Both the position numbers and the translations under genes were made by a program. A DNA stretch of 64,000 nucleotides, taken from Pedobacter sp. BMA (GTDB lineage Bacteria > Bacteroidota > Bacteroidia > Sphingobacteriales > Sphingobacteriaceae). The first letter of the stretch is position 1. Each line of letters starts with the position of its first letter. Of the stretch, positions 32,658-34,266 are shown in pieces. The stretch spans positions 62,001 through 126,000 of the forward strand of contig NZ_LECU01000006.1 in NCBI RefSeq assembly GCF_001027745.1. Direction: 5' to 3'. The notes under the pieces were generated by a model, which was given only the letters and a program-made list of their open reading frames with translations, made no database searches and was not told the origin of the DNA.

Positions 32658-33032
32658 TCAGACTTTCGGGTTATGTGATTGGGTATCCAACCATTTCTTC
32701 TCGATCAGATAAGATACAATTAAACCGAATCCTCCAAAAACGCCTAAACATCCGAAATAAACTGCAACAGACTGTGATTCTTCCTGATGTGTTAAATCGC
32801 TTCCATATATTCCCCGAACCGTAAATAAGGCTACCAATAAGCCTAGCCCTAAGCCCACGAGTAAGAGACCAAATTTTAAGCTGACAAAAGGCTTCGGCGT
32901 TGCTTTGTGGATACCCGGATCTATGCCACGCTCAATCATGGCCATTTTTTCTTTATTTGATAGATAACGAATTCCGAATACCATCGCGAATGCGCCTAAG
33001 AAAAGTGAAATTGGAACTAATATACCTTCCAT
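32658..33032 (-). CDS. Small membrane protein, DUF6249-like
   Basis: A 124-residue protein with three hydrophobic segments (about residues 4-21, 54-73, 90-110). The first is followed by LSNKEKMAMIERGID, a motif common in small membrane proteins of this phylum (DUF6249 type) whose function is unknown. It is encoded divergently from the ECF sigma gene, and an ECF-type promoter element on this strand lies about 60 nt upstream (33093-33121), so it may be a direct target of that sigma factor. Confidence 0.8.
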   Translation of the reverse strand: MEGILVPISLFLGAFAMVFGIRYLSNKEKMAMIERGIDPGIHKATPKPFVSLKFGLLLVGLGLGLLVALFTVRGIYGSDLTHQEESQSVAVYFGCLGVFGGFGLIVSYLIEKKWLDTQSHNPKV

Positions 33033-33092
33033 AACTATAATTTTTAACTGTTAATATTTAAACTCTTGCCTGAACCGTGTTCTGTGTATTAT

Positions 33093-33121
33093 GACTACAT
33101 GTTTCTTAACCAGGTTACACC
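33093..33121 (-). promoter_or_regulatory. ECF-type promoter element toward the DUF6249-like gene
   Basis: On the minus strand GGTGTAACCTG (complement of 33111-33121), a 10-nt spacer and ATGTAGTC (ending at 33093) repeat, at the same spacing, the element in front of the ECF sigma gene. TGTAACC fits an ECF -35 ('AAC' core) and AGTC a -10 near CGTC, 16 nt apart. Confidence 0.6.
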
Positions 33122-33173
33122 TAAAGTGAAAATCAGTCAACAACCGTATACTGCCGTAATGATTTAACCATTC

Positions 33174-33202
33174 GGTGTAACCTGATCATGATTGATGTCG
33201 TC
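33174..33202 (+). promoter_or_regulatory. ECF-type autoregulatory promoter of the sigma/anti-sigma pair
   Basis: GGTGTAACCTG (33174-33184), a 10-nt spacer and ATGTCGTC (33195-33202) give TGTAACC-N16-CGTC, the shape of ECF sigma promoters. The predicted start lies near 33209, 6 nt before the ATG at 33215. Its 11-bp 5' part is the exact inverse of 33111-33121. Confidence 0.65.
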
Positions 33203-33214
33203 TAATTGCTGAAG

Positions 33215-33793
33215 ATGGAGCAGACTACAGATTTAGCGATAATAGAGCAGGTATTGAGTGGTGATTCCACTCAATATGCCTTGTTGGTTAAGCGACATCA
33301 ACGGTTTGTATTTACACTTGCATTAAGATTTAGTAAAAACCGGGAAGATGCAGAAGAAATTGCCCAGGATTGCTTCGTAAAGGCTTATAAGGCACTTGGC
33401 ACTTTTAAGCAATCTTCCAAATTCACTACCTGGCTGTATACCATTACTTACACTACCGCAATGACCTTTTTGCGTAAAAAGCGGGTGGCAACTTCTTCGA
33501 TTAACGATGAGGAAACAGCTTTTCAGCTGGAGAACCACATCTCGGCTTTCAAAGCGGATCATTACGAAAGAAAGGACATCCATAATTTTTTGAACCAGGC
33601 CATTGAGCAGCTATTACCCGATGATGCCGCGATCATCACCTTATTTTATCAGGGAGAGCAAAGTTTGGAGGAGATTGGTGAGAGTTTGCATATGGAGCCG
33701 AATACGGTTAAAGTAAAATTACATCGGGCACGGCAGCGGCTTAAGGATAAGCTACAATATTTATTACAACATGAAGTAAATGAATTATTATGA
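33215..33793 (+). CDS. ECF RNA polymerase sigma factor
   Basis: A 192-residue sigma-70-family factor with region 2 (FVFTLALRFSKNREDAEEIA through FKQSSKFTTWLYTITYTTA, about residues 30-80) and region 4 (SLEEIGESLHMEPNTVKVKL, about 150-170), and no regions 1 or 3, typical of ECF factors. I chose ATG 33215 over an in-frame TTG at 33206, which would overlap the predicted transcription start. The stop overlaps the anti-sigma ATG (ATGA), so the two are coupled. The paired promoter elements suggest that it drives its own gene and the divergent one. Confidence 0.94.
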   Translation: MEQTTDLAIIEQVLSGDSTQYALLVKRHQRFVFTLALRFSKNREDAEEIAQDCFVKAYKALGTFKQSSKFTTWLYTITYTTAMTFLRKKRVATSSINDEETAFQLENHISAFKADHYERKDIHNFLNQAIEQLLPDDAAIITLFYQGEQSLEEIGESLHMEPNTVKVKLHRARQRLKDKLQYLLQHEVNELL

Positions 33794-34266
33794 ACAGAAT
33801 AGAAGAACAGCTTTGGGATTATATTGATGGGAACCTGGACGAGGCTCATGCAAAAACTATCGCAGATCAGATTCATTCGAACCCGGAGCTAAAACACCAG
33901 TATGAGCAGTTGGTAAGTTTAAATTTAACGCTGAATGCCTTATCGCAGGACGAACCTTCTTTGTCTTTCACGAGGAATGTTATGGAAAGCATTGCTCATG
34001 AACCGCAGCCAGTAGCTTTAACCACTAAAGTTAATAAAAAACTGATATATGGTATAGGTTTGATCCTGGTGCTTCCCCTTTTTTCTATGTTTGCCTATAT
34101 CGTTTATTATTCAGATTTGAGGTTGCCGGATTTTAATTTAAATCTGAACTTCAATTTAAAAAAGTTTTTTACGCCTACCGCTTTTAATATTTTTATTTTC
34201 TCTGACATCGTTATCGGGTTAATATTTCTGGATCATTTACTGAGAAGTAAAGCGGCAGGGAAATAG
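33790..34266 (+). CDS. Probable anti-sigma factor (membrane protein)
   Basis: A 158-residue protein. The cytoplasmic N-terminus (IEEQLWDYIDGNLDEAHAK, then 'I..NPELKHQYEQL') resembles the anti-sigma domain of zf-HC2-like proteins, but without the zinc His/Cys set. Two hydrophobic segments follow (about residues 93-114 and 133-150) with LPDFNLNLNFNLKKFF between them. Coupling to the ECF gene by an ATGA overlap makes an anti-sigma role likely. The signal is unknown. Confidence 0.8.
   Translation: MNRIEEQLWDYIDGNLDEAHAKTIADQIHSNPELKHQYEQLVSLNLTLNALSQDEPSLSFTRNVMESIAHEPQPVALTTKVNKKLIYGIGLILVLPLFSMFAYIVYYSDLRLPDFNLNLNFNLKKFFTPTAFNIFIFSDIVIGLIFLDHLLRSKAAGK

What the first reader, a model, noticed from the sequence alone, without database searches (positions are those of the whole stretch)
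33093..33202. Two matching, divergent ECF-type promoters between an ECF sigma gene and a small membrane protein gene
The 11-bp inverted repeat GGTGTAACCTG (33111-33121 inverted, 33174-33184 direct) is not just an operator: each copy is followed at the same distance by ATGT[C/A]GTC, giving TGTAACC-N16-[C/A]GTC on both strands. AAC-containing -35 boxes and CGTC-type -10 boxes are typical of ECF sigma factors. One element faces the sigma/anti-sigma operon, the other the DUF6249-like gene. This predicts that the sigma factor activates its own operon and a membrane protein, and it gives a motif for finding the regulon.
Basis: partly seen in the sequence, partly recalled or inferred. Interest (0 to 1): 0.65.

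Follow-up and report, generated by a model that had tools for sequence, protein, structure and literature searches.

The report
Self-activating sigma switch with membrane partner
In this soil-bacterium genome (Pedobacter), two matching start signals for gene reading face away from each other, one for a stress-type sigma factor and its probable inhibitor and one for a small membrane protein of unknown function; both signals are kept in nearly all relatives examined, so the sigma factor very probably switches on itself and that membrane protein.

Summary
GTAAC[C]-N16-NGTC lies upstream of the sigma gene in 46 of 49 loci and of DUF6249 in 47 of 47 (one locus has GTAACT, one a 17-bp spacer); 91 sites in 12,480 nt of upstream windows against 2 in 474,558 nt elsewhere (one of the two is itself a DUF6249 promoter). 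Where DUF6249 sits directly upstream on the same strand, only the sigma site is missing, as expected for one operon. In 37 of 47 loci the two genes are 0.5-2.6 kb apart, so the inverted repeat is a pair of promoters, not an operator. Of 30 sigma genes checked in this genome, only this one carries the element. 29 of the 30 best-scoring DUF6249 loci of a phylum sample have a sigma gene alongside. The motif does not reveal a broad regulon: genome-wide counts do not exceed controls. One further intergenic site precedes an outer-membrane beta-barrel gene, but it also stands in two genomes lacking the sigma. Autoregulated ECF sigma/anti-sigma pairs are a known kind; the constant DUF6249 partner is the new element. 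Transcription was not measured.

The parts
33174..33202 (+). ECF-type promoter of the sigma/anti-sigma operon: -35 TGTAACC (33176-33182), 16-bp spacer, -10 CGTC (33199-33202); 12 nt from GTC to the ATG, so the mRNA is probably leaderless or nearly so (inferred)
   Evidence: conserved 34-47 bp before the sigma start in 46 of 49 loci and within 130 bp in 68 of 76 named loci with a sigma hit
33093..33121 (-). ECF-type promoter of the DUF6249 gene: -35 TGTAACC (33119-33113), 16-bp spacer, -10 AGTC (33096-33093)
   Evidence: conserved 60-91 bp before the DUF6249 start in 46 of 47 loci, the 47th also has it; 80 of 80 named loci
33215..33793 (+). ECF sigma factor, 192 aa (Sigma70_r2 and Sigma70_r4_2)
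   Evidence: PF04542 E 1.2e-17, PF08281 E 3e-12; closest solved chains include AlgU, E. coli sigma-E and SigW
33790..34266 (+). probable anti-sigma factor, 158 aa: N-terminal helical domain plus two long C-terminal helices read as membrane helices; no zinc-finger match
   Evidence: overlaps the sigma stop; no Pfam or NCBIfam hit itself, but of 5 HMM-related proteins at the same place in other loci 3 pass the zf-HC2 cut-off, 1 matches below it and 1 has no hit; low-confidence model (pTM 0.30) whose top matches are RsiW, MucA, ChrR, RslA, best E 0.84
32658..33032 (-). DUF6249 small membrane protein, 124 aa, long helices 5-25, 49-76 and 82-120 with a conserved NKEKMAMIERG stretch
   Evidence: PF19762 E 5.4e-18; alignments; model mean pLDDT 78
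33072..33082 (-). short inverted repeat GAAC-ACG-GTTC near the predicted 5' end of the DUF6249 mRNA
   Evidence: GAAC-N2..4-GTTC exactly 10 nt after GTC in 36 of 45 examined 5' regions, shuffled mean 0.04 per set; folding energy itself not unusual (z 0.56)

Best explanation
The two elements are the start signals of one small positive-feedback circuit. The membrane-anchored anti-sigma factor holds the ECF sigma factor. When an unknown envelope signal frees it, sigma directs RNA polymerase to TGTAACC-N16-NGTC at its own operon (making more sigma and more inhibitor) and at the neighbouring DUF6249 gene. DUF6249 is the constant, perhaps principal, target. Shown here: the elements, their position, their conservation, their loss exactly where an operon makes the second promoter unnecessary, and the co-inheritance of the genes. 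Inferred: that this sigma is the one that reads them, the direction and sign of control, release from the anti-sigma, and any role of DUF6249.
For: Both elements conserved in place and spacing. The sigma-side element is missing in six same-strand loci with DUF6249 only 42-97 bp upstream (L300, L301, L309, L311, L312, L313; L072, L077 and L071 are three of these same contigs by length) and kept in the same-strand loci with gaps over 500 bp (L065, L069, L075). Only 1 of 30 examined sigma genes of this genome (of 48 found) carries the element; one other, L217, has a GTAACC-N14-AGTC at -144. In 25 Pedobacter genomes searched with both proteins, 17 have DUF6249; 16 of these have a sigma of 64% identity or more, and the 17th (G018) has a diverged adjacent sigma (32%) with both sites; the 8 without a DUF6249 hit have no such sigma ortholog. 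In the phylum sample 29 of 30 loci have a sigma gene nearby, and GTAAC[CT]-N15..17-NGTC precedes both genes in 15 of 29, the relaxed G[ACT]AAC[CT] form (chosen after looking) in 20 of 29, against 0 of 29 for the reversed patterns. AAC at -35, CGT at -10, cotranscribed anti-sigma and positive autoregulation are listed as hallmarks of early-studied ECF factors in PMC8103513 (passages).
Against: No transcript data. The genome has 48 sigma-region-2 matches, 18 of them not examined for the element, and another ECF factor could share the -35 preference: an outer-membrane gene carries GTAAC-N15-CGTC even in two genomes without this sigma. 9 of 29 phylum loci do not show the pair even with the relaxed pattern. 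One genome (G019) has a 34%-identical sigma with a similar site but no DUF6249 hit. The anti-sigma assignment rests on distant homologs, and its fold matches are not significant (best E 0.84).
Confidence: 0.87

Rival explanations
1. The promoters are real but are read mainly by a different ECF sigma factor of the genome, or by several with overlapping specificity; the neighbouring sigma gene is only one of the targets.
For: Related GTAAC...CGTC elements stand before an outer-membrane gene in G005 and G010, which have no ortholog of this sigma and no DUF6249 hit. PMC9723704 (passages and section 15, part 1) warns that its CGT-type motif may be shared by several ECF factors.
Against: None of the other 29 sigma genes examined has the element with this spacing upstream (18 of 48 not examined). 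Sigma and DUF6249 are present or absent together in 25 of 25 Pedobacter genomes compared. The pairing reaches across the phylum.
Confidence: 0.1
2. The 11-bp inverted repeat is an operator for a dimeric repressor or activator acting between divergent genes.
For: Exact inverted repeat in a divergent intergenic region.
Against: In 37 of the 47 loci with both genes the genes are more than 500 bp apart (34 of them divergent, 28 of 47 over 1 kb, up to 2.6 kb), in 27 of 47 with a cNMP-binding regulator and an SMR gene between, yet each element keeps its place. In close same-strand neighbours only one copy remains. Each copy is followed at fixed distance by GTC.
Confidence: 0.02
3. Chance similarity in an AT-rich intergenic region.
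For: Genome-wide counts of the motif do not exceed reversed controls.
Against: 91 sites in 12,480 nt of upstream windows against 2 in 474,558 nt elsewhere.
Confidence: 0.01

Closest known systems
Autoregulated ECF sigma/anti-sigma operons such as E. coli rpoE-rseA or B. subtilis sigW-rsiW (operon facts recalled; rpoE autoregulation in a passage of PMC8103513)
   Same: Sigma followed by an overlapping probable membrane anti-sigma gene; AAC-containing -35 and GTC-containing -10; sequence closest among solved structures to AlgU, sigma-E and SigW
   Different: -35 is TGTAACC with a 16-bp spacer; no wide regulon visible; a DUF6249 gene is the constant partner; no zinc-finger match in the window's anti-sigma while some distant ones have it
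SM6 promoters and the ECF/anti-sigma pair THC0290_1774-1773 of Flavobacterium psychrophilum (PMC9723704; passages and section 15, part 1)
   Same: Same phylum; mapped starts with a CGT -10 box; an ECF/anti-sigma operon among the targets
   Different: The printed selection of SM6 promoters lists T9SS, Band-7 and other genes and names no DUF6249 gene; orthology of that sigma with this one was not tested
SigH-1 (ECF114) and SigW-1 (ECF251) of Bacteroides thetaiotaomicron (PMC12596196, passages)
   Same: Bacteroidota ECF factors
   Different: Reported promoters resemble a TGTT-type or -30/-10 non-canonical motif; membership of this sigma in any ECF group was not tested (the classification paper is not held)

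Membership tests
ECF (group IV) sigma factor | Only regions 2 and 4 of the sigma-70 family | tested here: met
   PF04542 at 24-90 and PF08281 at 127-176 of 192 aa
ECF (group IV) sigma factor | Promoter with AAC at -35 and CGT at -10 (hallmark quoted from PMC8103513) | tested here: met
   GTAACC-N16-CGTC before sigma, GTAACC-N16-AGTC before DUF6249; the base before GTC varies among relatives. Sequence only; promoter activity not measured
[quoted passage not shown]
   Next gene overlaps the sigma stop and is detected in 46 of 49 loci; some distant counterparts carry zf-HC2; binding and cotranscription not tested
ECF (group IV) sigma factor | Positive autoregulation | tested here: inconclusive
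   Conserved matching promoter; transcription not measured
Class I anti-sigma factor (ASDI) | N-terminal three-to-four-helix domain that binds sigma | tested here: inconclusive
   Model helices 4-13, 18-30, 32-53, 58-69; top fold matches RsiW, MucA, ChrR, but E 0.84 or worse and pTM 0.30
Class I anti-sigma factor (ASDI) | Hx3Cx2C zinc motif (present in about 56% of the class per PMC7406223) | tested here: not met
   No Pfam hit for the window protein; of five counterparts scanned three pass the zf-HC2 cut-off, one is below it, one has none. The motif is not required for membership
DUF6249 (PF19762) | Match over the curated cut-off | tested here: met
   65.3 bits against cut-off 33
A numbered ECF group (ECF Hub) | Group HMM score | not testable with these tools
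   Classification paper not held; no group models on hand

The most novel reading that the evidence does not exclude
Sigma, anti-sigma and DUF6249 form an ancient three-part signalling unit of the Bacteroidota whose conserved regulon is essentially the unit itself, with DUF6249 acting as a membrane component of the sensing or feedback step rather than as an ordinary downstream effector.
Probability: 0.35. Interest if true: 0.68.

Novelty: new member of a known kind. Interest (0 to 1): 0.5.

Why it matters
It gives an experimentally tractable promoter pair and a partner gene for an uncharacterised ECF system in a phylum where, per PMC7406223 (passages), only 6% of ECF factors are associated with a recognised class I anti-sigma factor. 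It also gives a functional lead for DUF6249: in the held library one paper holds the name, a plant receptor-kinase study (listing), and DUF6249 genes stand next to an ECF sigma gene in 29 of the 30 best-scoring loci of a phylum sample.

Tried and rejected
Wider regulon: strict, relaxed and two-mismatch patterns in the own genome and a strict pattern in 99 Pedobacter genomes gave no excess over reversed controls. Of the own-genome hits, those outside the locus lie inside ORFs except one. The non-locus hits (up to 2 mismatches) were not placed relative to genes, and of the hits only 20 regions were looked at.

Third site: TGTAACC-N15-CGTC before an outer-membrane beta-barrel gene (G000:C6:760192-760217). 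A GTAAC...CGTC site is present in 22 of 22 orthologs of 59% identity or more (with L351 found on recheck); the spacer is 15 bp in 18 and 16 bp in 4. It also stands in G005 and G010, which lack the sigma ortholog and a DUF6249 hit. The pattern was not found before 8 of 8 more distant relatives of 46-49% identity. I therefore do not count it as a proven member of the regulon; L271 shows that a 15-bp spacer can occur at the sigma gene itself (by eye).

Other recurrent hits: TGTAACCTTCGCTACCACGTCCGCGTC lies antisense in a 634-aa ORF. Sites 49-51 bp before related genes in G022 and G127 (alpha/beta hydrolase in G022) and 50 bp before a beta-lactamase-like gene (by eye) in G017 were not pursued.

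Structure of DUF6249: all-helical model without a meaningful fold match. RNA fold of its 5' region not unusual.

Phylum control: the reverse-complement of the same upstream windows also scores (GTAAC[CT] both sides in 5 of 29, relaxed form 8 of 29). I read this as the partner promoter on the other strand of short gaps, so it is no clean control; the reversed pattern gave 0 of 29 for both sides (1 of 29 for DUF6249 alone with the relaxed form).

Literature: the listings of searches show nothing on this sigma/DUF6249 pairing; the main ECF classification paper is not held, so prior notice there cannot be excluded.

Rows and sets: the 49-locus set (L064-L112) is 45 of the 46 Pedobacter loci of 64% identity or more (G021 was not refetched) plus 4 same-class loci. 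The named set (80 best of 293) overlaps it in genomes, so the two are not independent. The phylum set is the 30 fetched, best-scoring genomes of 62 with a match and includes 3 of the genus and 2 more of the family.

Full report
What is there. Between the ECF sigma gene (33215-33793, +) and a DUF6249 gene (32658-33032, -) lie two copies of GGTGTAACCTG in inverted orientation, with AGTC or CGTC 16 bp after TGTAACC. The sigma gene is followed by an overlapping gene for a 158-aa protein with two long C-terminal helices that I read as membrane helices. Pfam gives Sigma70_r2 and r4_2 for the first, DUF6249 for the divergent gene, and nothing for the third. The window lies in a 5.04-Mb genome whose closest named relatives for this locus are Pedobacter species.

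Conservation. I collected 49 loci with the sigma gene (45 Pedobacter including the own one, 4 from other families of the class). GTAAC-N17-NGTC (GTAACC-N16-NGTC in all but L080, which has GTAACT) stands 34-47 bp before the sigma start in 46 of 49. It stands 60-91 bp before DUF6249 in 46 of the 47 loci with a detectable DUF6249, one of these with a spacer longer by 1 bp (L083). The 47th (L064) also has it, displaced in my count by a shortened gene. In one of the two loci without DUF6249 nearby (G064) the gene lies 15 kb away and again carries the site. Density is 91 sites in 12,480 nt of upstream windows against 2 in 474,558 nt elsewhere; one of those two is the L064 DUF6249 promoter. In 80 named loci the DUF6249 site is present in 80 of 80 and the sigma site in 68 of the 76 with a sigma hit. 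Of the eight misses, six are same-strand neighbours 42-97 bp apart, one has a 15-bp spacer (L271, by eye), and one (L295) has the site but a sigma gene of which only the C-terminal half aligned. The named and unnamed sets share genomes.

A natural experiment. DUF6249 is divergent from sigma in 41 of 47 loci and upstream on the same strand in 6. Where it exceeds 500 bp both remain: L065, L069, L075 (L310 and L306 repeat L065 and L075). In 27 of 47 loci a cNMP-binding regulator gene and an SMR-family gene, and in 7 more the SMR gene alone, lie between DUF6249 and sigma; the window has neither (families named by Pfam on L084 only). Gene gaps exceed 500 bp in 37 of 47 and 1 kb in 28. This rules out a palindromic operator and fits two independent promoters.

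Which sigma. 48 sigma-region-2 matches were found in the genome (47 over the cut-off); of the 30 fetched, only this gene has the element upstream, and one other (L217) has GTAACC-N14-AGTC at -144. DUF6249 and sigma go together: 17 of 25 Pedobacter genomes have a DUF6249 hit and all 17 have the sigma (one pair much diverged, with both sites); the 8 without a DUF6249 hit have no sigma of 64% identity or more. One of these (G019) has a 34%-identical sigma with a similar site.

Depth. A phylum sample of 198 genomes had DUF6249 in 62 (57 over the cut-off). Of the 30 best-scoring loci fetched, 29 have a sigma gene within the 1.5-kb flanks. GTAAC[CT]-N15..17-NGTC precedes both genes in 15 of 29 and the relaxed G[ACT]AAC[CT] form, chosen after looking, in 20 of 29, against 0 of 29 for the reversed pattern in either case. 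The reverse complement of the windows scores 5 and 8 of 29, which I attribute to the partner promoter in short gaps. The remaining 9 include three same-strand arrangements and loci with no recognisable pair.

The anti-sigma. The window protein has no zinc-finger match, but of five HMM-related proteins at the same position in other loci three pass the zf-HC2 cut-off, one is below it and one has no hit. The model has helices consistent with a class I anti-sigma domain and its best fold matches are RsiW, MucA, ChrR and RslA, none significant. PMC7406223 (passages) says zinc and non-zinc versions mix within groups and that only 6% of Bacteroidetes ECF factors are associated with such a protein.

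Regulon. The motif does not reveal one. Counts do not exceed reversed controls in the own genome (12 v 17; 12 v 26; 28 v 33 with two mismatches) or over 99 genomes (282 v 295). In the own genome the only other hit outside ORFs precedes an outer-membrane beta-barrel gene (OMP_b-brl_3 and CarboxypepD_reg by Pfam on its ortholog in L155). That site is present in 22 of 22 close orthologs, with a 15-bp spacer in 18 and 16 bp in 4, and stands also in two genomes without this sigma, so I leave its owner open.

Transcript anatomy (inferred). GTC to the sigma start is 8-21 nt, most often 12, implying a leader of a few bases; GTC to the DUF6249 start is 34-65 nt. The DUF6249 leader begins with GAAC-N2..4-GTTC exactly 10 nt after GTC in 36 of 45 cases, of unknown meaning.

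Verdict. The finding is real and its promoter reading is very likely right. As a kind of system it is known: an autoregulated ECF sigma/anti-sigma pair with an adjacent target; the hallmarks are quoted from PMC8103513 (passages). What is new is the deep, almost invariant association with DUF6249, for which no function was found in the library (listing). Whether earlier ECF classification work lists this neighbour could not be checked.

Noticed in passing
G000:C6:760192-760217 (locus L009), own genome, outside the window: TGTAACC-N15-CGTC before an outer-membrane beta-barrel gene; a like site in 22 of 22 close orthologs, also in two genomes lacking the sigma factor.
   Followed up: partly
33072-33082: Inverted repeat GAAC-N2..4-GTTC at a fixed 10 nt after the -10 box of the DUF6249 promoter in 36 of 45 loci; possible 5'-terminal hairpin or binding site.
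   Followed up: partly
33203-33214: Only 12 nt separate the -10 GTC from the sigma ATG, and 8-21 nt in relatives: the sigma mRNA is probably leaderless or nearly so, unlike the DUF6249 mRNA.
   Followed up: partly
for example L084:2419-3378, between DUF6249 and sigma: In 27 of 47 loci a cNMP-binding regulator gene and an SMR-family multidrug-resistance gene lie between the two, in 7 more the SMR gene alone; the window has neither.
   Followed up: partly
L370, L371, L373, L374, L376 upstream of beta-barrel relatives: TGTAACCTTTT followed about 15 bp after TGTAACC by CATCTTA, seen by eye: looks like the promoter of another ECF factor with a similar -35 box.
   Followed up: no
L300, L301, L311, L313, upstream of sigma: GACGCGCGTC palindrome just before the sigma start in four of the six loci where DUF6249 lies directly upstream of sigma on the same strand (by eye).
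   Followed up: no
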